NCBI GenBank assembly: GCA_017408585.1
Contig: JAFQUJ010000017.1
Span: forward strand, 1 to 64,000
Direction of reading: 5' to 3'
Source of the DNA: Clostridia bacterium
Lineage (GTDB): Bacteria; Bacillota; Clostridia; Oscillospirales; CAG-272
DNA length: 64,000 bases
In this document: piece after piece, positions 32,242-55,044 of the stretch
Position numbering within the stretch: the stretch's first letter is position 1
Layout of the letters: every line of letters begins with the position of its first letter
Program-made: the position numbers and the translations under genes
Notes under the pieces: model-generated
Seen by the model: the letters and a program-made list of their open reading frames with translations, nothing else
The model's database searches: none
What the model was told of the DNA's origin: nothing

Positions 32242-33072
32242 TTATAAAATACTATATCCAACGACCATAGCTATGCTATCGGCTACTCCAAAAAGGACAA
32301 ATGCGAGCACTATTGCAACAATTATTTTCACTATTGTAGAAATTCTGTTGCTCTTTAGCTCCATTTTTCTGCCAAAGATTATCATTAAGACAATCGAGGC
32401 AACAAAAAGCAAAATCGGGCAAAGCGAGCCAACCAAGGCAAAGGCTAGGTATGATAGGAAAAACAGTAAGAATCTAAGCACGAAGTACGCAATTAAAAAC
32501 GCAATTGCTCCCACCGGTAATATGAATATATTGACCTTCTCCAAAATAGTAAGGATTGTATCCACGAAGCCAAATTTTTTCGTACAGATTATTATTGCCA
32601 CCACTAAGCACACCGCAACTAAACCAAGGGTAATAAAAGCTGAAAGAGCTCCCTCTCCCTCAATATCTTGTGGTAAGAAATATCTAAGTGACGAGGATGG
32701 AATAAGCTCCTCGGCAACCCATTCAAGAGCGCCTATTGGTATTAAGAACAGCGTTACCACGAGCGATAAAACGGTTGCAAAAATGAGAGGAAGGTTTACC
32801 CATCTTGCGCGTTGGCGATCCCTCTTTTTTCTTGCCTCAACATCTCGCTCTGTTGCAAGACGCGCTCTTTCGGTGCGCTGTATCTCGCTTAGTGCGTTAT
32901 TGAATTTGGATTTTTCTTGCCCTAGGCGAGAATAATACGCATTTCTTTTTCTTGAATAGCTATCCGTGTTATCGGTTGAATATGTACCTATCAGCGGTCT
33001 TATCGTGTTGCCTGTCAGCATATCACGATAACTCACCGAGGTTTCCTTTAATATTGAGTCTTTAAAATCCAT
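32242..33072 (-). CDS. Multi-spanning membrane protein with the shared N-terminal module
   Basis: A 276-residue membrane protein, last gene of the T7SS-like operon. Residues 1-75 are a divergent copy of the module shared with the three genes upstream: SYRDMLTGNTIRPL corresponds to KYIQMLDGSTPPPY, and YSRKRNAYYSRLGQEKSKFN to YSSKRDRYYNRLSQERSEFN. A basic stretch (residues 75-90) and about six hydrophobic helices follow, starting at WVNLPLIFATVLSLVVTLFL. There is no outer domain. It could be a channel or anchor component of the apparatus rather than a client (inference). No known family recognised. It lies 10 nt behind the Hint gene. Confidence 0.72.
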   Translation of the reverse strand: MDFKDSILKETSVSYRDMLTGNTIRPLIGTYSTDNTDSYSRKRNAYYSRLGQEKSKFNNALSEIQRTERARLATERDVEARKKRDRQRARWVNLPLIFATVLSLVVTLFLIPIGALEWVAEELIPSSSLRYFLPQDIEGEGALSAFITLGLVAVCLVVAIIICTKKFGFVDTILTILEKVNIFILPVGAIAFLIAYFVLRFLLFFLSYLAFALVGSLCPILLFVASIVLMIIFGRKMELKSNRISTIVKIIVAIVLAFVLFGVADSIAMVVGYSIL

Positions 33073-33082
33073 AATGTCCTCT

Positions 33083-34846
33083 CTATTTTACAGAATTTGG
33101 GTCATAATATAGCTTTATAAGTCCCAAGAGCCTTGTATATGTAAACTCTCCCCTTGCAATTGCTACCTTATAATATTTGAATGGGAAAATTTGATAAACC
33201 TCATATGGAACATATTCCTTGAAGTCATCATAGGTAAACAATCCGTATCTTTCAATATCGGCAAGCATTTTTTCCTCGTCGTATTTCATACTGCTGTCAT
33301 ACTCGAACAGATTTGCCATTCCGGCAGATAGAGTCAGTATGTCATTTGCGACAAGATTAATGTGCCAAATTGATGCGGGATTGTAAATTTTTGTTAGCTC
33401 CCTTGTTATGCTAACGCCCTCAAGAGTTGTCTCGGCGCTAACGATTTTATCGCCTTGATGCTCAATACACGCAAATCGATGACCGATAAAGTCGCTTGCG
33501 TTTTCTACATTTAAGTAAACATAGCGATTTAGATCCTTATCAAAAAGCCCATGCTCGTCAATTATTTTTAGCTCTTTTCCGTTTGAGAATGTTAAGGCTA
33601 TTACATCAAAATAATCAGCGGGAGTGTTTGCGTGAATGTTTGCAAGAAGCGCCTGAGGCTCATATTTTCCACTTTCATGGTTAAATACTAGGAGAACATC
33701 ACCCACCTCTAGCTCCTCGACGAGCTTTGTCGTTCCATCATAAAGCACAATCTCTGTGCCCGGAGCGATACAGCCCGGGTCAGAGCTACGAGCTGAGAAG
33801 CTCATATTCTTTTCTAGCGTAAAGGTATATGGGTAGCTTGAGCTTGTACCATTTACGCTAAATGATTTGTCTGAATAATAATGCTCAACATTAACAGTTA
33901 TCTTTGTGCCACACTGCACCTCAAGCTTTTCGCCCGATTTTGGCGTTACATTTGTACCATTATAGCTTACTATATAGCTTGCATTACTTGCGGAAAAGCT
34001 GAGTGTTGCCCATTTTTTATCTCTAAATATCGCCCTTGCGGTGTACCAGCCATCAAGCTCTATCTTTTCGCCTGCACGATATTTTTCTCCATCAATCTCC
34101 CAATAATCAAAGGTGTATCGAATGAAATGGTCTTCCTTGATATCGTCAGATTTTTTAAGTGTTGGAAGAGTATATGTAGAGCCTTTTTCGGTATAAATTA
34201 TTTCTCTGCGATCTGCACCAACCAGAACAAGCTTTCCCTTGCCCAAATTGGCAATCAAGTTGGAAACATTTATCATCACAATGATTAAAGTAATCGCCAA
34301 AACAACAATAGCTATTATATTATATTTTTTAACGCCAACTGTGTTTGTACGATTTATATATCGTTCGTTACGATACATTTTTACATTGAGGAAAATTGCC
34401 GATACCGCAAGGCATAAAATACAGAAAACAACATACAAAAAGATAACAAATCCAAGCTCCATGCCGATATCATATTGTATCTTATCCATCAGTCCGTGCG
34501 ATTCGTTAAACACATCAAGACCGACCAAAAGAGCCACAAGCACAGGAAGGATAAAAATTATCGTCCTTATGGCCTGTCTTTTCTTGAATTTTGCACGAGC
34601 TTTTCCCTCAAGAGCATTATTTTCAGCCATTAGGCGAAGATTTTCCGTGTCTACAACCTTGTTTAAGGCGTTATTAAATTCGCTTCTCTCCTGAGATAGT
34701 CGATTATAGTATCGGTCACGCTTGCTTGAATAAGCGCGCGTTGCATCGAGCTCTAGCTCCCCCTCGTATGGCGAGGGGGTTGAGCCGTCAAACATTTGAA
34801 CATATTTTCTGTTGGTTTCTTGTCTTACTGTTTGTCTGAAGTTCAT
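33083..34846 (-). CDS. Membrane protein with shared N-terminal module and Hint (hedgehog/intein) domain
   Basis: 587 residues. The shared module (1-70: KYVQMFDGSTPSPYEG, YSSKRDRYYNRLSQERSEFN) is followed by three membrane helices (about 90-200), which place the rest outside if the N-terminus is inside. A beta-rich region follows, with one InlB-type repeat (FDYWEIDGEKYRAGEKIEL). At C359 a Hint domain starts: CIAPGTEIVLYDGTTKLVEE, LEVGDVLLVFN, and DEHGLFD as the histidine block. The usual splice-end HN pair is absent, so any self-processing would cut at the N-side of C359 rather than splice. A helical tail of about 100 residues ends the protein. Hint domains in secreted proteins release or attach segments; that role here is inference. 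Confidence 0.78.
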   Translation of the reverse strand: MNFRQTVRQETNRKYVQMFDGSTPSPYEGELELDATRAYSSKRDRYYNRLSQERSEFNNALNKVVDTENLRLMAENNALEGKARAKFKKRQAIRTIIFILPVLVALLVGLDVFNESHGLMDKIQYDIGMELGFVIFLYVVFCILCLAVSAIFLNVKMYRNERYINRTNTVGVKKYNIIAIVVLAITLIIVMINVSNLIANLGKGKLVLVGADRREIIYTEKGSTYTLPTLKKSDDIKEDHFIRYTFDYWEIDGEKYRAGEKIELDGWYTARAIFRDKKWATLSFSASNASYIVSYNGTNVTPKSGEKLEVQCGTKITVNVEHYYSDKSFSVNGTSSSYPYTFTLEKNMSFSARSSDPGCIAPGTEIVLYDGTTKLVEELEVGDVLLVFNHESGKYEPQALLANIHANTPADYFDVIALTFSNGKELKIIDEHGLFDKDLNRYVYLNVENASDFIGHRFACIEHQGDKIVSAETTLEGVSITRELTKIYNPASIWHINLVANDILTLSAGMANLFEYDSSMKYDEEKMLADIERYGLFTYDDFKEYVPYEVYQIFPFKYYKVAIARGEFTYTRLLGLIKLYYDPNSVK

Positions 34847-34873
34847 GGTTAAATCTCCGATGGCTTTATATCA

Positions 34874-37800
34874 TCACTTGCGGAACCAATAGTAATTTAC
34901 ATATGTTGATCTTAAATATGTTAAAGCTGTTGATGTGTTTGAAAGACCACTTATGCTATTACCGCTTGTATCATACTCAACATTCGAATAATACCATCCA
35001 CTTGTTGATACGAATTTTACGCCTGTAAGTCCATAACAGTTGTTAATTATTCCCTTACCTATCTTTTTCACACCACTTCCAATGGTTAGTGTTGTAAGAT
35101 TGCTACACATATCAAATGCGTAATTGCCTATTTTTGTAACACTGCTTGGTATTGTTATGCTTGTAATATTTCTACAGTTTCTAAATGCGCCTTCTTGTAT
35201 TTCTGCAACTCCGTTTGATATAGTTATACTTGTAAGTAAGGTACAACCATTAAATGCGCCATTACCAATAACCGTTACACCACTGGGTATAGTAAAACTA
35301 GTGTTAGATTTGTTCCTAGGATAAAGCAATAGCGTTTTTCCGTCTTTACTATATAATACTCCATCTAGCGATTTAAATGTTTGATTGTTTCCATCAACTA
35401 CTATGCTCGCAAACGAGGTACAGCCATAGAATACATTGTCGCCTATCGTGGTTACTTTTTCCGGGATCTCTATGCTTACAAGCGAGGTGCAACCAGAGAA
35501 CGCAAGGCTTGATATTGAAATTAGATTGTCAGGAAGAGTTATGCTTGCAAGCACCTTGCAACCATTAAACGCCGAGCCTCCTATTGAGGTTAGGTTAGAA
35601 GGTACTGTCACTTTTTTAAGCGCAATGCAATTATAAAATGTTTCGCTGTTTATTACGGTTACCTTCTCCGGAATCTCTATGCTTTCAAGCTTGGTGCAAC
35701 CATAAAATGCTGAGCTTCCTATTGAGGTTAGATTAGAAGGCAAGCTCACGCTTTTAAGTGATGAGCAACCATAGAATGTAGAATACTCTATCGCAGTTAC
35801 ACCACTTGGAATTTCTATGCCTTCAAGCAAGGTACAGCCATAAAATGCCGAGCTTCCTATTGAGGTTAGGCTAGAAGGCAAGGACACGCTTTTTAGTGAT
35901 GAGCAACCATAGAATGCTGAACCTCCTATTGAGGATAGGTTGGCAGAAAGGGTAACGCTTGCAAGAGAAGTACATCCATAGAATGTAGAATCCTCTATTA
36001 CAGTTACACCACTTGGAATTTCTATGCCTTCGAGCAAGGTACAGCCATAAAATGCCGAGCTTCCTATTAAGGTTAGGCTAGAAGGCAAGCTCACGCTTTT
36101 AAGTGATGAGCAACCATTAAACGCACCTGTTCCTATTTCTTTTACTTTATTAGGAATTGTTATACTGTTAAGAAAAGTACAATTGGAGAATGCAAAATTA
36201 TATATATATTCGGTGTCGGCGTGTATATCACAAGAGGTAATGCTTTCGTTCTTTGCTTTTACAAGTGCTCTATATGGGTTATCTTGGGTTCCCAAATAAT
36301 ATGCATTACTGTATGTGGTATACTCAAAATGCTCGCATCCATCAAATGCGTCATTACAAATAACTCTTGTATCTTCGTGAATTTCGCACGAGGTTATGCT
36401 AGTATTTTTTGCCTTTACGAGAATTACATATGGGTTTGTATCATTTCCAAGATAATATGCATTATCATATTCGTTATACTTAAGCGCAGAGCAACCATTA
36501 AACACACCCGTTCCTATCGAGGTTATTGTGCTTGGTATTGTTATGCTTTCGAGCGCTGTACAATTTGAAAACGCGTCTGATCCCATCGTAGTTACGCTGT
36601 CTGGAATTGTCACGCTTGTAAGCGCAGTGCAACCACGGAACGCGCCATTTGCTATCGAGGTTACGCTATCCGGAATTGTCACGCTTTCAAGTGCGGCACA
36701 TCCCGAAAACGCGGAATTTCCTATCAAGGTTCCACCATTTATAACTACTGTTTTCAAATTGCTTTTAGGAACATATGAAGCCACATGAGCAGGCATAGTA
36801 GCGTTTTCTATTGGACAACCATAGAAAGCATTGGTTCCTATTAAGGTTACACTATCAGGAATGGTTATTTCGGTTAGTCCGGTACAGCCATTAAATGCGT
36901 AATTATTTATAATTTCCAAGCCAGCTGGGAGCGTTACGCTTTCAATTGAGGTACAGCCACTGAAGGTATATGATAAAATCCTTAATGTTGTGCCTCCATC
37001 GCTCCAGCTTTCAACATATGTTCCCTTGGTTATGTTTACCTTTTTCAAGCTATTTGGAATATAATAGGTTTCGAAGTTTTGGTCAACCTCGGTTGCGTTG
37101 GTAAAGCTAGATGTTCCAAAGAAATAGCCCAAAACGGTTGTGCTTGAAGCTCCTTCTGATGCCATAAGGGTTTTTCCAATATATGGAGTGGTGAGCTCCT
37201 CAAGGCTTGAACAGCCGTAGAATACCTTCTCGCCTATCTCGTCGATTTTGTCGCCGAGGGTTACCTTTTTAAGATTGGAGCAGTTATAGAACGCGCCATA
37301 GAAAAGCTTTCCACCTGTTATTGTTACAGATTTAAGGCTTTCGGGGATATAATAGGTTGCGCTACTGCCCGATTTGTAATACTGTCTTGTTGCTACCCCA
37401 CTCTTATTTGATGTGCCAAAAATATAGCCAAACAAGGTTTTTTGTGATGCTGATGATTCACTATTACTTGCGCCAACAAAAGGAAGAGTTATGCTTTCAA
37501 GTCCTGTGCACGCACCAAACACACCCTCGGAGAGTGAGGTTACCTTGTCAGGAACGGTTATGCTTTTAAGTGAGGAACAGCCCCAGAAGGCATATGCGCC
37601 AATCAAGGTTACATTATCTAATGCGATAACCTCAAGTGATTTACAGTCTAGGAATGCACGCTCGCTAATTGTGCTAGCGGTGTTTTCGGGCATTCTTTTA
37701 AGGCTTGAACAACCCGAGAAGGCGTATGCGCCAATAGAATTTGCGGGCTTTTCGTATGTAACTCTTTCAAGTAGGTCACAGTTGACAAACGCATAATCGC

Positions 37801-39679
37801 AAATTGTTTGCTGATCTGTTACCTTTACTATTTTAAGAGATTTTGGGATTAAGAACGCATATCCGTTTTGCGTGGTGTGCTCGCTTGAATCACTTGTTAC
37901 ATATTGAGATGATGTAGATGACATTGAATTGTTGTCGCTTGAATCACCAAAAATATATCCAAGGGTTGAAAAGCGAACCTCCTCCGGTTGCTTGTTTTTA
38001 CCAATGAACGGAAGTGTTATCTCCTCAAGAGAATCGCACTTTCCAAATGCGCCATAGCGAATTTGTGTTATGGTTTTTGGAATAACGATGCTCTTAAGTC
38101 CTGTACAGCCATAGAATGAGTATTCACCGATTTCGGTCAAGGTGCTTGGAAGCGCTAATGCTTCAAGAGAGGTACAGTTTTTAAACACTCCCTTGCCGAG
38201 CGCCTTAAGCTCAAACTTAGGCATTGACTTCATTTTTGAGCAATTTTCAAATGCGTACTCTCCGACTTCGGTTAGAGTCTTTTCGTACACGATTTGCTCT
38301 AGCAAATCACAGTTGACAAATGCTCTTGCGCAAACAGAGCTTTGGTCTGTTATTGTTACCTTTTTAAGAGAGTCGGGAATCTTAAAGATATATCCCAATT
38401 GAGTGGTGTATTCGCTATCTTCACTGCTTGTCAAATAGCTTTTTGACGAGCTGTTCATGTTTCCGTCCTTGTCTCCATCACCAAAAATGTAGCCGAAGGT
38501 TGACCAGCGTGTTTCGTCGGGATTTCTGGTTTTTCCTATAAATGGTATTGTCAATTCTTTAAGAGCAGGACAGCCACCAAATGCGCCGAAGCCTATGGTT
38601 GTTACACTATTTGGAATAACCGCGCTTTCAAGAGAGGTGCAATCGAAAAACTCGTAGCTGGGAATTTCTGCTCCGCCATTGATTACTACCTTTTTCAAGC
38701 TTGAACCAAAGCTCAAGCAGTTAAGTAGCTCTGCGGGAACATTTATTTCTTCTATATTTAAATTGCTATCTTCTCCAAAGGCATTTTTATATACTACAAG
38801 CTCTTTGATGGTTATAGCATCCGAGGATGGGTACGACACATTATAGTCTATATCGTCCTTTACTAAAACGGTTAAGCTCTTGATATCACAGCCATCAAAC
38901 GCTTCCTCGCCAATAAAGGTTACGCCCATTGGAATTACAACAGTGCTTATATCGGTACGATCCTTAAATGCTCTTGATGCGATTGCATAGCTTTGCCCCT
39001 TATAGCTATCGGGCAAAACAAGAACAGATGCGCTTCCGTCATAGCTTGTAAGATAGTAGCGTCCATCATTTTCCACGAATGAAAAATCGTCCTCTTGAGA
39101 TATGAGTCCTGTTGTAAGTGAAATAAACACTATCGCTATTGCGAGCACAACTGCAATAACGAATATTGCCAGCGCTGAATATTTCACCTTGCCCTCAACA
39201 TGATTTCGATTGTAGTAAATTTCGTTTTGGTTAAGAGAACGAATTAGCACTACTGCAATCACGAGGGTAGCTAATGCGAATAGCACCCAGAAAAAGATAT
39301 ATGGCGCGCCGGTTAGCTGGTCATACAGGGTTTTGTTTGAAAAAATATTAATTCCTGTAAATATTGCAAGAACTATTGGAAGCAAGAATGCGATGGTTTT
39401 GAGCATTTTGAAAAGCTTATATCTTGCCTTTGCGCCTTTTTCAAGGTCTGCCTCCTCGCTTCTTAGACGAGCGCTTTCGGCGCTTTGAACCTTGCTTAGT
39501 GCGCTATTAAATTCGCTTCTCTCCTGAGAGAGTCGATTATAGTATCGGTCACGCTTGCTTGAATAAGTGCGCGACGCGTCGATTTCGACATCACCCTCGT
39601 ATGGGGGTGGTGTCGAGCCATCGAGCATTTGTATGTATTTTCTATCGGCGTGTTGCCTTGTCGTTTTTTTGAAGTCCAT
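34874..39679 (-). CDS. Giant membrane-anchored BspA-type leucine-rich-repeat protein
   Basis: 1601 residues. The shared module at 1-70 (KYIQMLDGSTPPPYEGD, YSSKRDRYYNRLSQERSEFN) precedes a basic stretch and three membrane helices (MLKTIAFLLPIVLAIFTGINIF, YIFFWVLFALATLVIAVVLI, ALAIFVIAVVLAIAIVFISL). From about residue 230 to the end there are several dozen LRR_5 units of about 23 residues (example CTSLESAVIPNSVTTIGFGAFGG). A 69-residue triplet of repeats is duplicated almost exactly. The C-terminus YLRSTYVNYYWFRK matches that of the neighbouring LRR protein. BspA-type LRRs bind host or bacterial surface proteins. The lack of a signal peptide and the presence of the module suggest insertion by the local machinery (inference). 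Confidence 0.85.
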   Translation of the reverse strand: MDFKKTTRQHADRKYIQMLDGSTPPPYEGDVEIDASRTYSSKRDRYYNRLSQERSEFNSALSKVQSAESARLRSEEADLEKGAKARYKLFKMLKTIAFLLPIVLAIFTGINIFSNKTLYDQLTGAPYIFFWVLFALATLVIAVVLIRSLNQNEIYYNRNHVEGKVKYSALAIFVIAVVLAIAIVFISLTTGLISQEDDFSFVENDGRYYLTSYDGSASVLVLPDSYKGQSYAIASRAFKDRTDISTVVIPMGVTFIGEEAFDGCDIKSLTVLVKDDIDYNVSYPSSDAITIKELVVYKNAFGEDSNLNIEEINVPAELLNCLSFGSSLKKVVINGGAEIPSYEFFDCTSLESAVIPNSVTTIGFGAFGGCPALKELTIPFIGKTRNPDETRWSTFGYIFGDGDKDGNMNSSSKSYLTSSEDSEYTTQLGYIFKIPDSLKKVTITDQSSVCARAFVNCDLLEQIVYEKTLTEVGEYAFENCSKMKSMPKFELKALGKGVFKNCTSLEALALPSTLTEIGEYSFYGCTGLKSIVIPKTITQIRYGAFGKCDSLEEITLPFIGKNKQPEEVRFSTLGYIFGDSSDNNSMSSTSSQYVTSDSSEHTTQNGYAFLIPKSLKIVKVTDQQTICDYAFVNCDLLERVTYEKPANSIGAYAFSGCSSLKRMPENTASTISERAFLDCKSLEVIALDNVTLIGAYAFWGCSSLKSITVPDKVTSLSEGVFGACTGLESITLPFVGASNSESSASQKTLFGYIFGTSNKSGVATRQYYKSGSSATYYIPESLKSVTITGGKLFYGAFYNCSNLKKVTLGDKIDEIGEKVFYGCSSLEELTTPYIGKTLMASEGASSTTVLGYFFGTSSFTNATEVDQNFETYYIPNSLKKVNITKGTYVESWSDGGTTLRILSYTFSGCTSIESVTLPAGLEIINNYAFNGCTGLTEITIPDSVTLIGTNAFYGCPIENATMPAHVASYVPKSNLKTVVINGGTLIGNSAFSGCAALESVTIPDSVTSIANGAFRGCTALTSVTIPDSVTTMGSDAFSNCTALESITIPSTITSIGTGVFNGCSALKYNEYDNAYYLGNDTNPYVILVKAKNTSITSCEIHEDTRVICNDAFDGCEHFEYTTYSNAYYLGTQDNPYRALVKAKNESITSCDIHADTEYIYNFAFSNCTFLNSITIPNKVKEIGTGAFNGCSSLKSVSLPSSLTLIGSSAFYGCTLLEGIEIPSGVTVIEDSTFYGCTSLASVTLSANLSSIGGSAFYGCSSLKSVSLPSSLTSIGSSAFYGCTLLEGIEIPSGVTAIEYSTFYGCSSLKSVSLPSNLTSIGSSAFYGCTKLESIEIPEKVTVINSETFYNCIALKKVTVPSNLTSIGGSAFNGCKVLASITLPDNLISISSLAFSGCTSLVSIEIPEKVTTIGDNVFYGCTSFASIVVDGNNQTFKSLDGVLYSKDGKTLLLYPRNKSNTSFTIPSGVTVIGNGAFNGCTLLTSITISNGVAEIQEGAFRNCRNITSITIPSSVTKIGNYAFDMCSNLTTLTIGSGVKKIGKGIINNCYGLTGVKFVSTSGWYYSNVEYDTSGNSISGLSNTSTALTYLRSTYVNYYWFRK
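35100..38950 (-). repeat. LRR_5 (BspA) coding repeats, first array
   Basis: Tandem units of about 69 nt. Runs near 35740-35780, 35876-35917 and 36081-36122 are nearly identical at DNA level, a sign of recent internal expansion and of likely copy-number change. Array limits are approximate. Confidence 0.8.
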
Positions 39680-39705
39680 TGTTATTTTCCTGTTTTGTTT
39701 ATTGT

Positions 39706-42700
39706 TTATTTGTTACGCCAATAATACTGGTCGTAACTAGATGTTAAATATTTCGCTGCAGTTGATGCATCTGACAAATAATTCAACGAGTAGCTTGGCG
39801 AGAAGCCAGACCAGGTTGAGTATTCCCATCCGGATGCATCTTCAAATATTACGCTTTTAAGTGCTGTACAGTATGAGAACGCATATATTTCGATAGTCTT
39901 TACACTAGCCGGAATAGTTATGCTTTCTAGCGCAGAACAGCTAGAGAACGCATTACCTTCTATTGTTTCTAAGACGCTTGGAAGCGTTATACTCTTAAGC
40001 TTGCTGCAACCACTGAAGGCGTATCCTCCTATTTCGGTTACACCACTTGGAATTGTTATGCTTTCAAGCGATGAGCAATGATAGAATGTTTGATATCCTA
40101 TTTTTGTAAGACCACTTGGAAGAGTAACTGTTTTTAATCTGTAACAGCACCAAAATGTAGCGTTTCCCATTGAAATTACGCTATCTGGTATCAAAACCTC
40201 TTCGAGCGAATTACATTCAAGGAACACGCTTTTGCCCAGTTCAGTTACACTGTTTGGAATTTTCACTGTTTTGAGATATTTAGAATATGCAAACGCCTCG
40301 TCTGCAATTATAGCCACGCTGTTTGGTATTTCGAAAGTTGTATCCTGTTTACCAATAGCATATAAAACAAGTGTCTTTCCGTCCTTGGAATAAAGAGAGC
40401 CATCAACTGACTTGTAATTTGCGTTGTCTTTACTTACCACAATGTTTTCAATTGCGGTACACTCCAAAAATGCTTGCTCTCCTATCTTGGTTAGTCCCTT
40501 TCCAATCGTTATGCTCTTAATTGCGTTATTGCCATAGAATGCATATGGCTTTATTTCTGTAATAGCATCCGGTATTACCAGCTCTGTTATAGTAGCACCG
40601 TTTATGTTCAAGCTATGTGAATAATTTTGAGGATTTGACCACTCGTCAAAGAAAGATATATTACACCATTGCTCTAATGTTCCAAGATAATTTACGATTT
40701 CAAGGCGGTTACAATTTATAAATTGTTGTTCTCCTATTTCGGTTACACTAGATGGAATTGTTATGCTTGTAATTCCTGCGCAATTACTAAATACGCAATC
40801 TCCTATTTTGGTTACGCCGTTTGGAATAACAACGCTTGTTATTGAATCGCAATTATTGAAAATATAGTCTTTTATTTCAGTAATGGAGTTAGGTATCACA
40901 AGGTCTGTCAAAAGAACGCCCTTTATACTAAATGTTTCAGCATAATATGTTGGAGTGGAATATTCATTACTAAATGAAATATTACACCATTTCTCTAGCG
41001 TTCCAAGATAATTGACTGTCGAAATGCTATAGCAGTAATCAAAGGCATCGTTTCCAACTTGGGATACACCATTTCCAATTGTCACGCTTTCAAGAGACTC
41101 ACAAGAACGAAAAGCACTATCGCCTATTGTTGTCACACTATCAGGAATTGTTATGCTTGTAAGAGAGTCACAGTCGTAGAACGCTGACGAATAGATAAAT
41201 TTTGTATTCTCATGTATTTTACAAGAGGTAATATTTTCGTCCGTCACATTTAGCAATAGCAAATAAGGATTGGTATCGTTTCCTAAATATAATGCATTAT
41301 CATATGCATTGCATTTCATAGCAACGCTATCTGGTAATATGTATTCTCCCATCTCGGTAATGCTACTTGGAATTGTTATTGTTTCAAGGAGATCGCAGTC
41401 ATAGAATGCATAGTTTCCTATTTTGGTCACTCCGTCGGAAATTGTTGCGCTTATAAGCGAGGTGCAATCTGAGAACGCATATGCACCTATTATTTTCACA
41501 TTACCCGGAACAACTATGCTTGCAAGTGCAGTACAGTTTTGGAATGCCGATTTTCCAATTGTCGTAACACCATCAGGAATTGTTATGCTTGTAAGTGCTG
41601 TGCAATTATAAAATGCGCTATTGTTAATATACTTTGTATCTTCATGTATTTGACAAGAGGCAATCTTCTTGTCATTTGCGTTCATGAGCCAAAGGAACGG
41701 ATTATCTGCGTTTCCAAGATAACTTGCTGTATCATACACATTATATTTAAGTGCGGTACAGTTAGAGAACGCATAATCAGCTATTGATGTTACGCTATTG
41801 GGGATTGTTACATTCTCAAGAGATGTGGCATTTGCAATCGCATATGTTCCTATTGCTGTCACACCTGATGGAATTGTTATCTTTGTTATGTCGTCCTGAT
41901 AATAAAATGCATATTTATATATTTCGTAATCTTTACCATTATAGCTATCGGGCAAGGTTATTTCCGTTATGTTGCCCTTGTACGCCATGAGATAAATTTT
42001 ATTATCTCTTGTCCAAAATACATAGTCGTTTATTGTTTTTAATACGCTTTGTTCACTTGATGAGGTGTGTATTATCAAGTCAGAATCACTTGCTGACGAA
42101 ATGTCAAGTGAGGTTAAATTGTAAATCTCCACTAACTTATTACAGTTGTTAAACGCATAATCTTCTATTGTAATAACATTAGACGGAATTGTTACGCTTA
42201 AAAGAGAATTACAGTTAGAAAATGCACTATTTCCTATTGTAGTCACACTAGATGGAATTGTTATCTGCGTAAGAGAGCTACAATTGGAAAACGCATTAGC
42301 GCCTATTGTAATTACGCCTTCTGGAATGCTTATACTTTCAAGTGCGGTACAACTACTAAATACAGCTTTTTCTATTATTGTAATCTGGCTTGGGATATTT
42401 ACACTTTTAAGCGAATGGCACGCACTAAATGCGCATTCTCCTATCTCTTTTACATTAGCGCCAAGAGATATCCTTTCAATTTCCGAGCAATTGCCAAACG
42501 CGCCATATGCAAGAGTTCCACCATTAACAGTAACGCTCTTTAATGTGTTTGGAATGAAATAATTATGATAATCTCTCCATTGATTTGAATAATGTTGTTC
42601 CGTTTTTTTTGCTCCGTCAAACTCGTTTGAACCAAAAATATGGCCAAAATTATTTGAATAATAGGAACTAGAGAAATCTTTATTTGAGCCAACAAATGGG

Positions 42701-44358: not shown

Positions 44359-44371
44359 TTCTCGCTCCTAC

Positions 44372-44665
44372 TTAATATACATTTCTCTTTTTATAGATTT
44401 GCGCTTCGTATTCGGGCAATCTTGAAAGTCTTTCGTCGATTGATGCTTGATTTTCGTCAACACAGCCCTTAACTGATGCGTTAAATCGGTCTATTACCGA
44501 TACAAATGCTTGAATTGCGCCATGAATGCTTTGGTCAAGGTTACCAATATTAGCATTTAGCTCCGAGGAGCACTTAATGGTGAGAGCCTCGACCTTGGCT
44601 TTGAACTGTTCTATTGCCGATCGAGCGCTTAAAAGCGCGTTATCTGTAACACTTATTTTATCCAT
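44372..44665 (-). CDS. Small helical WXG100-like protein
   Basis: A 97-residue all-helical protein with no membrane helix or signal. Two helices, about 10-35 (ALLSARSAIEQFKAKVEALT) and 45-75 (DQSIHGAIQAFVSVIDRFNA), are joined by a turn, the size and shape of WXG100 proteins, but there is no W-x-G. The assignment to the WXG100 group rests on length, helicity and position (4 nt after one small gene, 13 nt before an LRR gene). A chaperone or co-secreted partner role is inference. Confidence 0.55.
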   Translation of the reverse strand: MDKISVTDNALLSARSAIEQFKAKVEALTIKCSSELNANIGNLDQSIHGAIQAFVSVIDRFNASVKGCVDENQASIDERLSRLPEYEAQIYKKRNVY

Positions 44666-44669
44666 TACC

Positions 44670-45170
44670 CTAATCCTGCTCCTTTAATTCCTTGTATGCC
44701 CATTTGAAGAAATGGTGGCTATATTTATGATATAGCTTTCTTATTTTTCTATCGAACAAAACATCATAGATTGTCACTAGCTTTTTTAGAATACTCCTTT
44801 GCTCCTCACCCTTTATGTCGGTGAAAACAAATTCTCTTACTTTCATATAAAGCTCTGTAAAATCGCCGATGCTTGTTTCTCTGTCATAATTAAGCTCCCA
44901 CTTTGAGTCTGCGTCTGTTGCCGAGATTGGCTCTACAAACTCGCCGAGGTCGAGCGTATCTATTTTCTGCTGATAAATTTCAGTCGGTGGCTCGATTTTT
45001 TCGATTGATCCGTTTCCCTCGTTTCTTGTCATTTTGCAAACGAGAAATTTATCAACTATGCTTCCGTTATTATCATATCCTAGTATTGGATAAAGCAGGC
45101 TTGATGGAAAGCTTCTGTCGTTTTCAAAAAACGATTTCATTGCCCTGCTTATAATTTCGCGATATTCCAT
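44670..45170 (-). CDS. Conserved-looking protein of unknown function next to the peptidase effector
   Basis: A 166-residue soluble protein I do not recognise. It has no membrane helix or signal; the C-terminal third is basic and aromatic (IRKLYHKYSHHFFKWAYKEL) and the N-terminus is mixed. It starts 6 nt after the WXG/cysteine-peptidase gene and is followed after 4 nt by a WXG-like gene. The position directly behind a possible effector is where an immunity protein or dedicated chaperone would lie (inference from gene order only). Confidence 0.6.
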   Translation of the reverse strand: MEYREIISRAMKSFFENDRSFPSSLLYPILGYDNNGSIVDKFLVCKMTRNEGNGSIEKIEPPTEIYQQKIDTLDLGEFVEPISATDADSKWELNYDRETSIGDFTELYMKVREFVFTDIKGEEQRSILKKLVTIYDVLFDRKIRKLYHKYSHHFFKWAYKELKEQD

Positions 45171-45176
45171 TTTTAC

Positions 45177-46310
45177 CTACCTTATTATCGTTTTTGTTAT
45201 GTTCATCTCTGCGCCTGTTGGAGCAAGTGCAAATCTCATTACCTCGACGGGAACGAGCCTTGCGCTTGATTCTCCCCTGTCACCCGAGTCGCAAACATAA
45301 ACGCCTGTTATTTCGTTTGTATGGGCATCTCTTTGAATGCTTGTTATAGTGATTGCGTGAAATGCGGGTACAGAGCCATGGCTTTGATACCATAGCATAT
45401 TCGCGTCAACAGTAGCGATTACTCCTCGTCCCTGCTCAACATATTCTGCGATTTTCTCAACTGAGCCATATTCTATGTCCGACTCAATTCCAAAATGTCT
45501 TAAAACCGCTTGTCTATCCTTGGCGTATGTACCACCATTATTTTCAGGTGAGCTATCAATTGTGCACATTGGACGAATTCCCTTAAATCCAATGATTTTA
45601 TGCGTTCTTGCGTAATTAACCACCTTTTCCTCGGTGATGTTAACGCCTGCCATACGGAGTATGTTTTCGACGCTTACAAGTCCGCATGTTCCCTCAAAGC
45701 CCTCGACGCCCTCTCCACCACGGCTTACAGGAACGCCTTGGTTTGAGTTTAGCTTTTCACCGGTTTGCTTAGGGGTATTGAAGGTTTTTACATATCCGTC
45801 TCTTTGCCATGTCTGTCTTGTTCTATTTAGCTTTGTAGGGCGTATTCCGTCTGAGATAAATTCGCCCTTTTCAAGCCGATCTGCCGATTGTGTCGCGCTC
45901 GGTGCGCTTGTGCTTGGAGCTGTACTTGTTCTTTTCGGCGGTGTGCTTGCTGATGTTGCACCGCTATTTGCGCTAGCAGTCACAGGTGACGATGCGGAAT
46001 AGGTCGATGCCACAGGAGAAGATGATGCTATACCGATACCCGTTGTACGATCGACAATTTCAAGCGCCTTATCACGAAAATATCGTGGATATGTAGCGCT
46101 GATTTCCTCGATAATGGTGTGAATTCTGGTTCTTAGAACCTCAATTTCTCTCATTAAATTGCCAAATGTGTGGTCATCGTCCCACTCACCTTGCAAATTC
46201 ACCATGTCTCTACAATAATCATCAAGTATTTGATTTTGACTTTCGCAGTATGCTTCTATTGAATCTGCAACCTCGCCTAGCACATCGGGGTCTAATATAA
46301 GCTCATCCAT
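45177..46310 (-). CDS. WXG-like protein fused to a papain-like cysteine peptidase (candidate effector)
   Basis: 377 residues in three parts. Residues 1-92 are a helical-hairpin domain clearly related to the separate 94-residue protein at 47348-47632; its turn reads GEWDDDH with W43. Residues 95-145 are an Ala/Ser/Thr/Pro-rich linker. Residues 195-377 look like a papain/C39-type peptidase: C209 in EGTCGLVSVENILRMAG, H318 in PAFHAITITSIQRD and D341 in VYVCDSGD form the expected triad order. WXG/LXG head, flexible linker and enzymatic tail is the layout of T7SS polymorphic effectors. It may cut a rival's proteins or process the neighbouring surface proteins. The next gene is a possible immunity gene. 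Confidence 0.75.
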   Translation of the reverse strand: MDELILDPDVLGEVADSIEAYCESQNQILDDYCRDMVNLQGEWDDDHTFGNLMREIEVLRTRIHTIIEEISATYPRYFRDKALEIVDRTTGIGIASSSPVASTYSASSPVTASANSGATSASTPPKRTSTAPSTSAPSATQSADRLEKGEFISDGIRPTKLNRTRQTWQRDGYVKTFNTPKQTGEKLNSNQGVPVSRGGEGVEGFEGTCGLVSVENILRMAGVNITEEKVVNYARTHKIIGFKGIRPMCTIDSSPENNGGTYAKDRQAVLRHFGIESDIEYGSVEKIAEYVEQGRGVIATVDANMLWYQSHGSVPAFHAITITSIQRDAHTNEITGVYVCDSGDRGESSARLVPVEVMRFALAPTGAEMNITKTIIR

Positions 46311-46379
46311 AGTTTCTCCTAATGATTTATAGCATTGTGGGCAAGCGCCCTTCTCTTACTACTTAGAGTAATGCTTTGT

Positions 46380-47075
46380 TTATTTCTTTAATTTTGCAGA
46401 GAAATCCTCGCTTTGAAGTCTTGATGGGAAAAATATTGGCTTACTTGCGAGATATTCATTTATTTTTGCGATTAATGCATTTAATTCCATCGCATTGTAC
46501 TCAGCCTCCTCTTGCATAAGGCCTAAGTACTTTTTCATTTCATACATACATTCCTGTATTGTGTCAAGTGCGCTTGCTACCGCGTCCTCCATCTCCTTAA
46601 AATAGGTGACGGTTGCTGAGGCGTCGTTTGCGAGGCTACGCGCAAGCTCATACTTTTTTCTATAATGATTGTAGTTATTAGTCGCCTCTTCTAATCTTCG
46701 ACGAGCAGCGCTAAGCGCATATTCGTCCACATCAGGCACTGTTTTTGTAGTTGAGTTTCCATCTGAATCGGTAACTGTCACCGTTTTGGTTCTGCTAAGA
46801 ATATAGTCTATTTCTCTTTCGATGCTTTGCATTTCTGCGTAATATTCCTGCATTTGATATTCATATGTTGTCGCCTTTGAGGACGCCTCGTCATATATTA
46901 TCTCGGCACGATTGATTTGAATTCTTATCTTTTGCAGATCCGACTCAACATCAAAATACAAGCGCTGAGCCTTGAAAATCAGCTGATCTGCGATGCTCAT
47001 GATTACATCGTATGTGTCATCAGTGTGGCTAGCAAATCTTTCAAGCGCTGATAGCTCTGTTTTTATACTTGCCAT
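46380..47075 (-). CDS. Coiled-coil protein of the T7SS-like operon
   Basis: A 231-residue, almost wholly helical protein with long heptad-like stretches (YEYQMQEYYAEMQSIEREID and ALSAARRRLEEATNNYNHYR) broken by a beta-hairpin-like insert (TVTVTDSDGNSTTKTVPD) at about residues 105-122. No membrane helix or signal. The start at 47075 lies 1 nt after the preceding stop with GGCGGAG before it; an in-frame extension of 18 residues would lie inside that gene. Long helical hairpins of this type occur in T7SS substrates of the LXG class and in their chaperones; no family assigned. Confidence 0.65.
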   Translation of the reverse strand: MASIKTELSALERFASHTDDTYDVIMSIADQLIFKAQRLYFDVESDLQKIRIQINRAEIIYDEASSKATTYEYQMQEYYAEMQSIEREIDYILSRTKTVTVTDSDGNSTTKTVPDVDEYALSAARRRLEEATNNYNHYRKKYELARSLANDASATVTYFKEMEDAVASALDTIQECMYEMKKYLGLMQEEAEYNAMELNALIAKINEYLASKPIFFPSRLQSEDFSAKLKK

Positions 47076-47076
47076 A

Positions 47077-47331
47077 TCACAACTCCGCCAATCTTGCGCT
47101 GAGCTTGTCGAGCATTTGATCAAACTCACTTTCGCTATAATTTTCCTTTACCAGCTCGTGCATTTCAACCGCAACAAGATTTTGTTGCCATGTATTAAAC
47201 GAAAAACGCTCGAAGTTTTCGTGTATAGCCTCGTAGGAGGGAGCGGTTTGGTCCTTCCAAATCGCTCTTAACTCACTTACGCTATCCTTTAAGTTGAAAA
47301 TTGACTGGGTAAACTCTCCGTAATTATCCAT
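47077..47331 (-). CDS. Small WXG100-like protein
   Basis: An 84-residue helical protein of WXG100 size. The first helix ends in LRAIWKDQTAPSY, where W25-K-D takes the place of W-x-G at the hairpin turn; the second helix runs from about 30 to 80. It has no signal peptide. It stands 16 nt after the 94-residue relative and 1 nt before the coiled-coil gene. WXG100 proteins form dimers and are exported by FtsK/EssC-type ATPases; here export by the neighbouring FtsK-like ATPase is inferred. Confidence 0.65.
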   Translation of the reverse strand: MDNYGEFTQSIFNLKDSVSELRAIWKDQTAPSYEAIHENFERFSFNTWQQNLVAVEMHELVKENYSESEFDQMLDKLSARLAEL

Positions 47332-47347
47332 ATCTTATCTCTTTAAC

Positions 47348-47632
47348 TTATCCTATATCCTCTGGTCTTGACTCGATTAGTCTTGCCTTTTCTCTAAAGA
47401 ATCTTGGGTATTCTCTCTTTATATCGTTCATTATTGATTCAATTCTGCTTTTGAGAGTCCTTACCTCCTCAAGAAGAGGGCCTATTGTCTGGTCGTCGTC
47501 CCACTCACTTTGCAAAGCGCCCATTTTTGAAAGATAATCTGCCATTACCTGTGTTTGAGTTTCGCAATAAAATCCAATATCGTCCGCAGTTTCATATAGC
47601 ACTCTCGGGTCCAGCTCTAATATATCGTCCAT
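47348..47632 (-). CDS. Small WXG100-like protein with a W-D-D-D turn
   Basis: A 94-residue helical-hairpin protein. Start MDDILELDPRVLYETADDI, turn SEWDDDQT with W44, second helix PLLEEVRTLKSRIESIMNDI, end YPRFFREKARLI. It is related along its full length to residues 1-92 of the peptidase fusion (LDP, YCE, EWDDD, YPR-FFR are shared), so this is the stand-alone form of that head domain and possibly its dimer partner. The W-x-G glycine is replaced by aspartate. Confidence 0.72.
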   Translation of the reverse strand: MDDILELDPRVLYETADDIGFYCETQTQVMADYLSKMGALQSEWDDDQTIGPLLEEVRTLKSRIESIMNDIKREYPRFFREKARLIESRPEDIG

Positions 47633-47647
47633 ATTATCCCCCTCCTA

Positions 47648-47914
47648 TCAAGTGTTTCTATAATCGTTTATCCATTGGATTATTCTTCGACAATAGGTTT
47701 CTATTTGCTCCATTTTGTCGCTAACTGTTCTGAGCATGATTTGCATTTCCTCGGATAATTCGAGATACTTTTTTATGGTTGGATCTTGAAGTCCGGCAAA
47801 TTTAGCATTAACATCGGAATCAAGAACTCTCATGTTCATTGAAAGATCCTCGGCTGCCTCGTTTGAAAGCTTAATAGCCTCGTTAGCTGCTCTTTCAGAA
47901 ATCTTAAATTTCAT
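47648..47914 (-). CDS. Small helical protein of the T7SS-like operon
   Basis: An 88-residue protein predicted to be two helices (about 8-35 and 45-85), of WXG100 size but without a W-x-G or W-D-D turn; the turn region reads FAGLQDPTIKKYLELSEEMQ. It has no signal peptide or membrane helix. It is placed between the solitary FtsK gene and the W-D-D protein, with a 15-nt gap to the latter. Classed as WXG100-like by size, helicity and context only. Confidence 0.55.
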   Translation of the reverse strand: MKFKISERAANEAIKLSNEAAEDLSMNMRVLDSDVNAKFAGLQDPTIKKYLELSEEMQIMLRTVSDKMEQIETYCRRIIQWINDYRNT

Positions 47915-47942
47915 AAAATTCTCCTTGGTGCTCTAAGAGCGT

Positions 47943-48019
47943 TTTATATTTTTATACCGCGTAAGCGTTTGATTTGATCTAGCTTTTCATTTACTCTGTG
48001 TAGGATTTGAGATGCTCCC
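47943..48019 (-). repeat. 77-bp direct repeat, copy 1
   Basis: Identical to 48898-48974. It contains the last 25 codons and stop of the W-D-D gene, but here it is read in another frame as the end of the solitary FtsK gene (stop at 47991) and then untranslated spacer. Confidence 0.95.
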
Positions 48020-48875
48020 ACCTTTTTATTATTGATTTAATAATCTCTAAGCGTTCATTGTAATCTGCAAAGCCTATTTGAAGGTAAATGCCATTTCTGC
48101 CATAACGAATATCATTAAATAGCGATATTCCTGTTGGAGCATTTTTAAGCTCTTCTGCCCTTTGCAGATCAACATAAAAACTCGTTAGCACACTTAAATC
48201 AGGGAGAGGAAGGTAGATTTTGCTTCCACATTGGCTAAGCACGGTGGTTCTTGTTATTGGATATTTTATAATGATACTACTGCTCAACGACATAACCACA
48301 TTTATTCCAAATCGTCTTCCACACTTAAGTAAGAACTGCAGGCGATCAATTATACAGCTTCTTGTATTTTCATTTTCAAGAACAAGATCAACCTCATCAA
48401 TAACAATAAGAATTCTTGACTTTGCGACATATTGAGAGAGGGTTAGTCCCTGTTCTTTGCATTCCTGACCTCGACGCATAATCTCCTCTTCAAGTTCGCA
48501 AAGAGCAGACTTGGTCGCGTCCATACCGCGAGCTACAAGTTTAATATGGGGCAAGTGCAGATTTTCATAGCACTCAAATTCCACGCTTCCCTTAGGATCT
48601 AAAAGGTAAACATTTAATTCATTGGGGCTGTATTTATAACATGCACTCATGATAAGAGTGTGAATAAAGTTGCTTTTTCCACTTTTTTCTCCACCGAGCA
48701 CCATCGCGTTCATTTGATTTTCTATCAGATCCAAGGAATGTACTCCCTCGTTTGACATACCAATTGGAATTCTTAATCCCTCCGACGCTGATATGCTTTC
48801 GGTATGCGTATCAATATGTGACAAAAGCGTTTCAACACATACGATATGAGATGCATCAGAACTTGTAAAATCCAT
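47991..48875 (-). CDS. Solitary FtsK/SpoIIIE-type ATPase domain
   Basis: A 294-residue ATPase corresponding to only the middle lobe of the 1193-residue ATPase upstream. Walker A GGEKSGKS (61-68) and Walker B RILIVIDEVD (154-163) are intact, and MSACYKYSP and NDIRYG are shared with the large protein, yet the rest has diverged. Its last nine residues are encoded by the 77-bp repeat copied from the end of the W-D-D gene, so its natural C-terminus seems to have been replaced by recombination. It may assemble with the large ATPase as a regulatory or alternate motor, or be a decaying paralogue. AAGG precedes the ATG. Confidence 0.78.
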   Translation of the reverse strand: MDFTSSDASHIVCVETLLSHIDTHTESISASEGLRIPIGMSNEGVHSLDLIENQMNAMVLGGEKSGKSNFIHTLIMSACYKYSPNELNVYLLDPKGSVEFECYENLHLPHIKLVARGMDATKSALCELEEEIMRRGQECKEQGLTLSQYVAKSRILIVIDEVDLVLENENTRSCIIDRLQFLLKCGRRFGINVVMSLSSSIIIKYPITRTTVLSQCGSKIYLPLPDLSVLTSFYVDLQRAEELKNAPTGISLFNDIRYGRNGIYLQIGFADYNERLEIIKSIIKRWEHLKSYTE

Positions 48876-48897
48876 ACCTTTTCTTTCCTATTCTTTA

Positions 48898-48974
48898 TTT
48901 ATATTTTTATACCGCGTAAGCGTTTGATTTGATCTAGCTTTTCATTTACTCTGTGTAGGATTTGAGATGCTCCC
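48898..48974 (-). repeat. 77-bp direct repeat, copy 2 (probable source)
   Basis: Identical to 47943-48019, 955 nt apart. This copy is in its coding context, the 3' end of the W-D-D gene at 48899-49177. Confidence 0.95.
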
Positions 48975-49177
48975 TGCTCAATGGTATCTATATCTGCCAT
49001 AAAAGAGCTTATGGCAGATAATAGATTTTCATAGTCCTCGTCATCCCAATCTCCGTTGTTTGATTGGATTCGTTTTAGCGTCTCATCGAGCGCTTCCTTT
49101 ATTCCCTGAGTATATGTGCTAATGCTTAACGATGTAATCTCTAAGGCTTGCTCGTCAATGATTACGGTTTCACTCAT
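48899..49177 (-). CDS. Small WXG100-like protein with a W-D-D-E turn
   Basis: A 92-residue helical hairpin placed 2 nt after the large FtsK-like ATPase gene, the usual neighbour of a WXG100 gene. First helix about 8-40 (ITSLSISTYTQGIKEALDET), turn NNGDWDDEDY with W44, second helix 50-85. The conserved glycine of W-x-G is aspartate, as in the two related proteins downstream. No C-terminal Y-x-x-x-D/E export signal is seen. It is probably the main partner/substrate of the ATPase (inference). Confidence 0.72.
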   Translation of the reverse strand: MSETVIIDEQALEITSLSISTYTQGIKEALDETLKRIQSNNGDWDDEDYENLLSAISSFMADIDTIEQGASQILHRVNEKLDQIKRLRGIKI

Positions 49178-49179
49178 TA

Positions 49180-52100: not shown

Positions 52101-52761
52101 ATTCAAACTCGGCAAGCCATGCGTTTGCGCTTCCTCCAACAAAGGAATTAAAGCCTGCGATATTGAATTTCTTATCGTAAAGCGCAATCAATGCGTCAAT
52201 GCAAGCAATTGCCTTTTTACAGCAAGGGAAAATTTCGGATACGATGTTGGCAATTGGGCGTGGGTCATTAATTTGCTTCCTTTGTTTTGCGCCTGTGTCA
52301 TATTTGGTTACATTTTGATGGTTACCTGTGTAGGTGATAAAGGTTTCTCCATCAACCTCAACCTTGATAGGTGGAACCAGCGCATCAAAGTCAACTGAAT
52401 TTAGCTTTGCTATGCAATCGTTTATCTTGTCAAGAAGCTCGTGAAGAATCCTTTCGTTTTCCTCGTAGCTCTTGCGAGAATATTCCTTTGTGTCAACGCT
52501 TGTGCGATTCCACTCGTCCTTATAGTCTTTGCATAGAAGCTCGACTAAGTCGTTTATATCTTCTTGAATGCTGATAAAGTGCGTCGCCTTAAACTCCTCG
52601 TACTTTTGCTTCATTTCAGCTATCATTTCAGCTGACGCTCTCTCGATTGATCTCTTTTCGTTTGAGTATTGATTTGTCAATCTCGCTTCAAGATTATCAA
52701 TTTCAATACAATGGGAGTTGATTTTTCTAATCACTTCCATAATTTTGGTAATTTCTATCAT
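49180..52761 (-). CDS. Large three-lobed FtsK/SpoIIIE-type ATPase (EssC-like, without membrane helices)
   Basis: 1193 residues, the motor of the operon. Residues 1-130 are coiled coil, with no FHA domain and no membrane helix, unlike EssC/EccC. A degenerate first lobe follows (about 300-540, APLVLDLKKCGNIMLNID). The middle lobe is intact: Walker A GGTGSGKSN near 600, Walker B RILVIIDEIQ near 705, and a sensor-like WASQNVP. The third lobe (about 850-1193) is degenerate and carries a Ser/Thr-rich disordered insert. In T7SS the three FtsK lobes drive substrate export, usually with only one or two active. It may instead attach to the membrane through the shared-module proteins. The next gene, 2 nt away, is WXG100-like. 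Confidence 0.85.
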   Translation of the reverse strand: MIEITKIMEVIRKINSHCIEIDNLEARLTNQYSNEKRSIERASAEMIAEMKQKYEEFKATHFISIQEDINDLVELLCKDYKDEWNRTSVDTKEYSRKSYEENERILHELLDKINDCIAKLNSVDFDALVPPIKVEVDGETFITYTGNHQNVTKYDTGAKQRKQINDPRPIANIVSEIFPCCKKAIACIDALIALYDKKFNIAGFNSFVGGSANAWLAEFESKLRATYSKRFDELFVDESVEAIPKKFFVELEEDGKKSDVDIVAGTDTYNQSINIGDIKLLVEDNLKHLGYIADSPILDRYLEMGHLSAPLVLDLKKCGNIMLNIDEENYSEKTINFVNQLIIQFLLSFPANRINFCLVDIDNVMEFSHFAKLTKISNGILLSGIIRDDRQLEDTIKDMEQRMNKINDEVLSYNSVSDIYEYNSKFQANPQNVYLFVLANYPSGLRDETSKKLLRLMQAGNKTGVFSIIINNKACSLGSMYKPAEHQRFVESASKSALVINKIGNRFELSLGVSNYFEPKRDISVSQLDSIIEMMKDHAQEIASKPIYLEEMFDDTNARLKSPKGIAPTAEVLDIPIGKRGAEVQSLVLKTAGDGSAHAVAIGGTGSGKSNLLHAIIMSACYKYSPEELNIYLLDLKEGVEFKYYENHRLPHIKLLGVDLREDINSALAIFKNLMIEKERRGNLFKECGVSDIVQYVAKGYKMPRILVIIDEIQVLFADEQAGAEAIKSLGFLFREGRAFGINILWASQNVPKFPRLREEVLNHIGNRISLRLNEPDEALEIKIDPKAVKNLNRPEKGLGVINDIRYGNNSVEFRVAYAYSVEERVSFSTEITKKWKKVTDSIPQEPMFIVGGNEDPSPVEGTTIYTVAPQLEQEKKSYRLQLGQDYVTGKPFNIDMRNDGEKMNMLLAGIDIEVIRDMMGFSLLSLVANRLTDADCAQKGAKIYCANGEMINSENKSDLFNVIRDDFPNVVETVSSTEALKNCIKTLFKLYKERDNERDVLGGEISDNSPRYVVIHSIQRYADLFNENPTLILSEETEVQEEPATTSGGSSADAARSKFKNRNSAPSSVATPSSSKMPDRISFATAFKDLLEKGGQYGIHFIISINNTSTISAIRNELGSSMTYKILTKGVDSSSVSHLMSNLKVTSGLNNPKVAIVANADETTKIRIYRYNADVDSEWYKKLCETYRKLGG

Positions 52762-52806
52762 AATTAATCTCCTATTTCAATGTTTTGTTTTTGTTAAATT
52801 TTTAAG

Positions 52807-53157
52807 CTAAGCGATTTTTCTCTCGCTCTCAAAAAAGAACAGTAATCTAACCACTCTTTCCTTGCGTCGTCTTAGCGCCTCGCTCATCTCATAGGCGTAA
52901 CGCATATTTCCTTCTGCGATGGTGGCAAGCGTGTTGCGTAGCCCTTGTTGCTTGCGCTTGTAGGCGCGTAGCCTCTTAACATATTCCTTAGTCGAGGAAA
53001 TGCTATCCGGCTCTCTCTTATAAGGAGAGGGCGCATCGCCTAGGTACATATCAAAATATGTCTTATCGACAGTATCTAATACGCTATTTTTGAAGCACTC
53101 GCCAAAACAGCTAATAGGTGGCGAGGTGGCTCTGTATTGTCCTGTTGTGTTTTTCAT
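52807..53157 (-). CDS. Stand-alone shared N-terminal module protein
   Basis: A 116-residue soluble protein, first gene of the 21-kb operon. Residues 30-90 match the module that starts the four membrane proteins at the operon's end: TYFDMYLGDAPSPYKRE aligns with KYIQMLDGSTPPPYEGD, and YVKRLRAYKRKQQGLRNTL with YSSKRDRYYNRLSQERSEF. It stops where the others enter the membrane (RVVRLLFFFESERKIA). Being first and separate, it could be an adaptor or regulator that competes for the docking site used by the membrane clients (inference). No known family. Confidence 0.68.
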   Translation of the reverse strand: MKNTTGQYRATSPPISCFGECFKNSVLDTVDKTYFDMYLGDAPSPYKREPDSISSTKEYVKRLRAYKRKQQGLRNTLATIAEGNMRYAYEMSEALRRRKERVVRLLFFFESERKIA

Positions 53158-53227
53158 ATATCTTCCTTTATGTAATCCTTTAAGTTTTGTTTATATTCAC
53201 TTTGCTTTCACAAAAAGCTCAATATAT

Positions 53228-53257
53228 ATTATACTATAATAAATATATAATTGTCAA
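53228..53257 (-). promoter_or_regulatory. Strong promoter of the T7SS-like operon
   Basis: Minus-strand TTGACA (53257-53252), 18 nt, TATAAT (53233-53228), both perfect consensus, about 70 nt upstream of the first ATG. No other convincing promoter was seen inside the operon. Confidence 0.8.
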
Positions 53258-53275: not shown

Positions 53276-53286
53276 CCCCCCCCCCC
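53276..53286 (+). repeat. Homopolymer C tract (11 C) between divergent promoters
   Basis: It begins 18 nt upstream of the -35 box of the T7SS-like promoter and 112 nt before the -35 of the MBL promoter. It has the same length as the tract in the RM gene. Length change here could alter promoter strength. Confidence 0.9.
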
Positions 53287-55041: not shown

Positions 55042-55044
55042 AAG

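What the first reader, a model, noticed from the sequence alone, without database searches (positions are those of the whole stretch)
32242..53257. A 15-gene T7SS-like operon with non-standard parts
One strong promoter (53228-53257) and one terminator (32198-32227) bracket 15 same-strand genes with small gaps: a large FtsK-type ATPase, a second FtsK domain, several WXG100-size helical proteins, a WXG-like peptidase fusion, and four membrane proteins. Standard Firmicutes T7SS partners (EsaA, EssA, EssB, YukD) are not recognisable. Established knowledge: FtsK/EssC ATPases export WXG100 proteins. Inference: this is a distinct export or surface-display machine whose membrane part is built from the shared-module proteins.
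Basis: partly seen in the sequence, partly recalled or inferred. Interest (0 to 1): 0.88.

Follow-up and report, generated by a model that had tools for sequence, protein, structure and literature searches.

The report
Membrane-free type VII-like toxin island
A 21-kb block of 15 genes in an unnamed bacterium joins a known but little-studied, membrane-free cousin of a type VII secretion motor to a likely enzyme toxin and to membrane proteins with a shared new anchor, and it looks acquired and possibly switchable.

Summary
In detail: 15 minus-strand genes (32242-53157), a 12-of-12 promoter match and a terminator. It is not a canonical T7SS. The 1193-aa motor has no membrane helix and one intact ATPase site. 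Its nearest relatives are soluble EssC-like ATPases with small WXG-like partners, in print as 'mobile versions of T7SS' (2012) and as CoCoNuT add-ons (2024). g9 joins a predicted helical hairpin (W-D-D at the bend) by a linker to a papain-like C39 domain seen in two relatives; other relatives have a Gln-deamidase or HExxH protein there. YukD was found in both genomes with membrane EssC and in none of six with the soluble motor. In a same-genus genome the flanking genes lie 84 bp apart, without the block. New here: four membrane proteins (two LRR_5, one Hint, one short) sharing an N-terminal module not found elsewhere, and a C11 tract 18 bp upstream of the promoter; the window's only other such tract lies in a split restriction gene, so phase variation is proposed. 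That the module proteins form an export channel is untested, and no relative has them. Best reading: an acquired polymorphic-toxin cassette, a new variant of a known kind.

The parts
53276..53286 (.). C11 tract, 18 bp upstream of the -35 box: possible slippage switch
   Evidence: one run of 10 or more in 200 simulated windows
53228..53257 (-). promoter, 12 of 12 consensus
52807..53157 (-). g1, 116 aa, weak copy of the shared module, no membrane helix
49180..52761 (-). g2, 1193 aa soluble EssC-like FtsK ATPase, one Walker A/B pair
48899..49177 (-). g3, 92 aa WXG-like, W-D-D
47991..48875 (-). g4, 294 aa separate FtsK domain, 37% identical to the middle of g2
47648..47914 (-). g5, 88 aa, small protein
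   Evidence: no convincing family match
47348..47632 (-). g6, 94 aa WXG-like, W-D-D, 49% identical to the N-terminus of g9
47077..47331 (-). g7, 84 aa, small protein (W25-K-D, W48-Q-Q)
46380..47075 (-). g8, about 231 aa, no curated family match
45177..46310 (-). g9, hairpin, disordered linker and papain-like C39 domain: candidate toxin
44670..45170 (-). g10, 166 aa, candidate immunity protein by position only
44372..44665 (-). g11, 97 aa, small protein
39706..44358 (-). g12, module, 3 membrane helices, LRR_5 ectodomain
34874..39679 (-). g13, module, 3 membrane helices, LRR_5 ectodomain
33083..34846 (-). g14, module, 3 membrane helices, Hint-like domain
32242..33072 (-). g15, module and 5 membrane helices
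32197..32228 (-). terminator

Best explanation
An acquired polymorphic-toxin cassette driven by a soluble EssC-like motor. Shown by sequence: g2 is a membrane-free FtsK/EssC relative with one intact ATPase site beside WXG-like proteins; g9 joins such a domain to a papain-like C39 domain; the block is absent at the same place in a same-genus genome. Inferred: g2, perhaps with g4, forms a ring that grips the W-x-D hairpins, unfolds and threads g9, and g9 is delivered to a neighbouring cell while g10 protects the producer. Inferred, weaker: g12 to g15 sit in the membrane with the module inside and, in g12 to g14, the LRR_5 or Hint part outside, as contact or display parts. Inferred: slippage of the C11 tract by the promoter raises or lowers expression.
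For: g2 aligns to L025 over 302-1112 at 25% (E 9e-48) and to L022 at 29% (E 3e-44); one Walker A at 603, Walker B at 706. The soluble type is in 6 of 394 genomes of the order, all six already in the profile. C39 of g9: L015 31%, E 9e-21; L014 28%, E 4e-18; Cys and His kept in 4 of 4. The same domain lies in an RTX-repeat protein of Burkholderia stagnalis (31%, E 5e-14), so it occurs in a protein of another export type. Other relatives carry Gln_amidase (2.3e-8) or an HExxH protein with W-N-D (read). Model of g9: helices 8-42 and 46-92, bend at W43-D-D. Empty site in G027; GC 0.397 against 0.449 and 0.457. Loop charges.
Against: No pore is identified. A profile of the window's four small domains alone finds no WXG100 structure; the one that does contains a protein already named WXG100. 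g10 has no significant similarity to its counterparts (best E 0.48). The g9 model has mean pLDDT 52 and no fold search ran. The C39 protein of L015 lacks the hairpin. Relatives beside kinase, phosphatase, VWA or Hsp70 genes fit an intracellular role as well.
Confidence: 0.55

Rival explanations
1. An intracellular conflict system: the motor and hairpins hold or activate the C39 enzyme inside the producing cell, for instance on phage infection, and nothing is secreted.
For: No membrane helix on g2; relatives lie with STK, VWA and PP2C genes or Hsp70 and GrpE; three of ten relatives have no membrane protein in the run; the CoCoNuT authors place such ATPases in defence loci.
Against: The window lacks kinase, phosphatase, VWA and Hsp70 genes in the operon and has four membrane proteins; the g9 layout is that of exported toxins.
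Confidence: 0.27
2. One reading: a distinct export machine whose membrane part is built from the module proteins, with the soluble motor docking on the module.
For: One operon; module at the N-terminus of four membrane proteins and, weakly, of g1; predicted module inside; relatives L018 and L054 also have membrane proteins in the run, unrelated by name.
Against: Module in no relative of the motor; 3-helix anchors with large ectodomains do not look like a channel (inference).
Confidence: 0.13
3. The C39 domain is a processing peptidase that trims the hairpins or the surface proteins; the operon is an adhesin display unit without toxin.
For: C39 peptidases cut leaders of exported peptides (PMC3482391 passage); large LRR_5 proteins in the same operon.
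Against: The domain recurs in L014 and L015, where no LRR_5 protein was seen, and other relatives hold different enzymes in that slot.
Confidence: 0.05

Closest known systems
'Mobile versions of T7SS': solo WXG proteins with a distinct YueA-like ATPase of three FtsK/HerA domains, only the middle one active (Zhang 2012, PMC3482391, Table 1 note 6; passage read)
   Same: motor with a single central ATPase site, WXG-like partners, sporadic
   Different: that note speaks of solo WXG domains in other lineages; here there is a hairpin-C39 fusion, a second FtsK gene and LRR_5/Hint membrane proteins
EssC-like ATPase and WXG100 extension of Type III-A CoCoNuTs (PMC11090510 section 10; passages read)
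   Same: EssC homologue without membrane helices, WXG proteins next to it
   Different: no VWA, phosphatase or kinase among the operon's Pfam matches
HP0062 and HP0066 of Helicobacter pylori (PMC4978471, PMC3397514; passages read)
   Same: HP0062 is a dimeric helical hairpin with W-R-D at the bend, clustered with an FtsK-domain gene
   Different: no LRR_5 or C39 protein named in the passages seen
T7SSb of Firmicutes (EssC, EssB, EsaA, YukD, LXG toxins)
   Same: related ATPase domain; trafficking domain plus enzyme
   Different: no FHA or membrane helix on the motor, no YukD or EsaA found

Membership tests
Canonical T7SSb | EssC with FHA domain and membrane helices | tested here: not met
   no membrane helix, no FHA match
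Canonical T7SSb | YukD/EsaB | tested here: not met
   absent in 6 of 6 soluble-motor genomes including the own one and in two same-genus genomes; present in 2 of 2 with membrane EssC; own genome 69% complete
Canonical T7SSb | EssB | tested here: inconclusive
   0 of 10 genomes, two with membrane EssC among them
Canonical T7SSb | EsaA | tested here: not met
   0 of 10 over cut-off; one sub-cut-off match in G027, 6e-4
WXG100 superfamily | helical hairpin of about 100 aa with W-x-G at the bend | tested here: inconclusive
   hairpin in the g9 model with W-D-D; ten-row profile finds HP0062 7.9e-7 and EsxA 6.5e-6; window-only profile finds none; PF06013 none in the own genome
Mobile T7SS with three-domain ATPase | only the middle FtsK domain active | tested here: met
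   one Walker A and B pair, at 603 and 706 of 1193
Mobile T7SS with three-domain ATPase | three FtsK folds | tested here: inconclusive
   alignment with relatives only; the fold job was never accepted
Mobile T7SS with three-domain ATPase | N-terminal coiled coil in place of FHA and membrane helices | tested here: inconclusive
   about 300 residues without membrane helix or Pfam match; no coiled-coil program run
Mobile T7SS with three-domain ATPase | mobile or sporadic | tested here: met
   6 of 394 genomes; empty site
Polymorphic toxin | N-terminal trafficking domain and variable C-terminal enzyme | tested here: met
Polymorphic toxin | immunity gene next door | tested here: inconclusive
   g10 by position only
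TerY-P triad | VWA, PP2C and kinase in the operon | tested here: not met

The most novel reading that the evidence does not exclude
A split type VII machine: the soluble motor docks on the shared cytosolic module of the g12 to g15 membrane proteins, whose LRR_5 or Hint ectodomains sense or bind a neighbour and gate delivery of the C39 toxin, the whole unit being phase-variable through the C11 tract at its promoter.
Probability: 0.13. Interest if true: 0.85.

Novelty: new variant of a known kind. Interest (0 to 1): 0.5.

Why it matters
How membrane-free EssC-like motors act is open: the CoCoNuT authors predict secretion but say a different mechanism seems likely. This operon ties such a motor to a candidate enzyme toxin and to membrane proteins with one shared cytosolic module, which makes the question testable. 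It also suggests a W-x-D bend in partners of soluble motors, and that such a unit may be switched by slippage.

Tried and rejected
Nothing found: pattern searches for relatives of g2 and of the module in genome contigs and viral contigs; module in phages; C39 domain in viral contigs, phages and 397 other genomes of the phylum; solved structures like the C39 profile; flank repeats of 10 or more bases. The module's plasmid match (Serratia, TraY type, E 0.02) and the four weak matches (read) were taken as chance. PADLOC gave SspH (1.4e-23), mad8 and HerA matches for g2 over its FtsK domain, taken as generic. DUF2207_C matches of g12 to g15 are below the cut-off and were left aside. A conserved immunity family for g10 was dropped. 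The 2012 TerY paper is not held and is known here only through the passages of others. The empty site could not be checked in G089, where the helicase lies near a contig end.

Full report
What is there. Fifteen minus-strand ORFs run from 53157 down to 32242, with gaps of -53 to 76 bp, a full-consensus promoter and a strong terminator at the ends.

The motor. g2 matches FtsK_SpoIIIE and, far below their cut-offs, EssC and EccC models. It has no hydrophobic helix and one Walker A/B pair. Its better relatives are ATPases with at most one borderline hydrophobic stretch, in a faecal contig (L025), Caballeronia (L022), Deinococcus (L023), Rhodococcus (L024) and genomes of the same order. With g2 alone, 11 of 394 genomes of the order match at 1e-15, membrane-type EssC among them; a profile of ten soluble ones gives 6 of 394 at 1e-60, all six already in the profile, and only the two best candidates per genome were scored. 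g4 is a separate FtsK domain, 37% identical to g2's middle part.

What goes with it. Relatives carry small proteins next to the motor, and some carry kinase, phosphatase and VWA genes (L015; L022) or Hsp70 and GrpE (L013; L024). Near the place of g9 lie a C39-like protein (L014, L015), a Gln_amidase (L018) or an HExxH protein (L025, read). Cys and His of the C39 domain are kept in 4 of 4. In a sample of 398 genomes of the phylum only the own one had it; L014 and L015 come from the order sample.

WXG-like partners. Pfam's WXG100 finds none in the own genome. A ten-row profile, four rows of the window and six of relatives, finds HP0062 (7.9e-7) and EsxA (6.5e-6), and also designed and viral helical proteins; the window's four alone find no WXG100 structure. 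One search listed 32 ORFs around eleven soluble motors with a W at residues 28 to 62. By eye I took those that look like hairpins: g3, g6, g9, L023 (12478), L025 (6322) and L054 (9832) all read W-x-D; L022's WXG100 protein and a second one of L023, read, do too. So W-x-D occurs in eight proteins of 5 of 11 loci. Not fitting: short proteins with another residue there are g7 (W48-Q-Q), L025 7399 (W-V-T) and L023 9201 (W-R-S), and the other six loci have no W at a bend. g6 and g9 are close paralogues. The membrane-EssC locus L017 has W-K-G, and HP0062 has W-R-D (PMC3397514, passage). In the g9 model the bend falls at W43-D-D, pLDDT 64 to 75 there, 52 overall.

No standard system. YukD: 2 of 2 genomes with membrane EssC, 0 of the 8 others searched. 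EsaA: 0 of 10 over cut-off, with one sub-cut-off match in G027. EssB: 0 of 10, uninformative.

The module. g12 to g15 share about 93 residues and g1 has a weaker copy; the genome's five matches are these. g12 and g13 are 170 of 180 identical in their first bases and 57 to 62% beyond base 360: the anchor is shared or recently exchanged, the outer part differs. Loop charges put the module inside and the LRR_5 part outside. No relative of the motor was found to have it.

An acquired block. In G027 the orthologues of the RecQ gene (64.5%) and of the metallo-beta-lactamase gene (46%) lie 84 bp apart; here 21 kb lie between. GC is 0.397 against 0.449 and 0.457. No integrase was seen in the block and no end repeats were found. 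Loss in G027 is not excluded.

A possible switch. Two runs of eight or more C or G exist in the window, both C11: one 18 bp upstream of the operon's -35 box, one inside a restriction-methylation gene whose second specificity domain follows in another frame. Two hundred simulated windows gave one run of ten or more; twelve fetched loci gave one, in L043. Slippage is the usual reading (general knowledge), so phase variation is proposed; an assembly shows one length only and can misread such runs.

Verdict. The core is a known kind, described from comparative genomics (passages). The paper searches, in an open-licence library, listed no report of the LRR_5/Hint combination. New is the variant: a hairpin-C39 fusion beside this motor, a second FtsK, module-anchored membrane proteins and the tract.

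Noticed in passing
2286-6027: Restriction-methylation gene (N6_Mtase, Methylase_S) with a C11 tract at 2802-2812 near its end; a second Methylase_S stretch follows in another frame: a likely phase-variable gene.
   Followed up: partly
54043-61082: WYL regulator, helicase, an AAA gene and a DUF2201/VWA gene; not beside the same neighbours in G027, while helicase, AAA and VWA genes are together in G089.
   Followed up: partly
501-2270: AAA ATPase with OLD-like TOPRIM match beside the restriction gene, a possible defence gene.
   Followed up: no
L045:6761-11026: Burkholderia stagnalis RTX-repeat protein with the same C39-like domain; the next gene reads like a peptidase-containing exporter.
   Followed up: partly
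L018:11318-12980: Soluble-motor locus with a Gln_amidase protein and a 290-aa protein with a weak WXG100 match at its start.
   Followed up: partly
L054:3983-10101: Soluble-motor locus from the viral collection with genes that by reading look JAB- and ThiF-like and a W-N-D protein.
   Followed up: no
L015:1839-3020: Phage-type integrase just upstream of the soluble-motor cluster.
   Followed up: no
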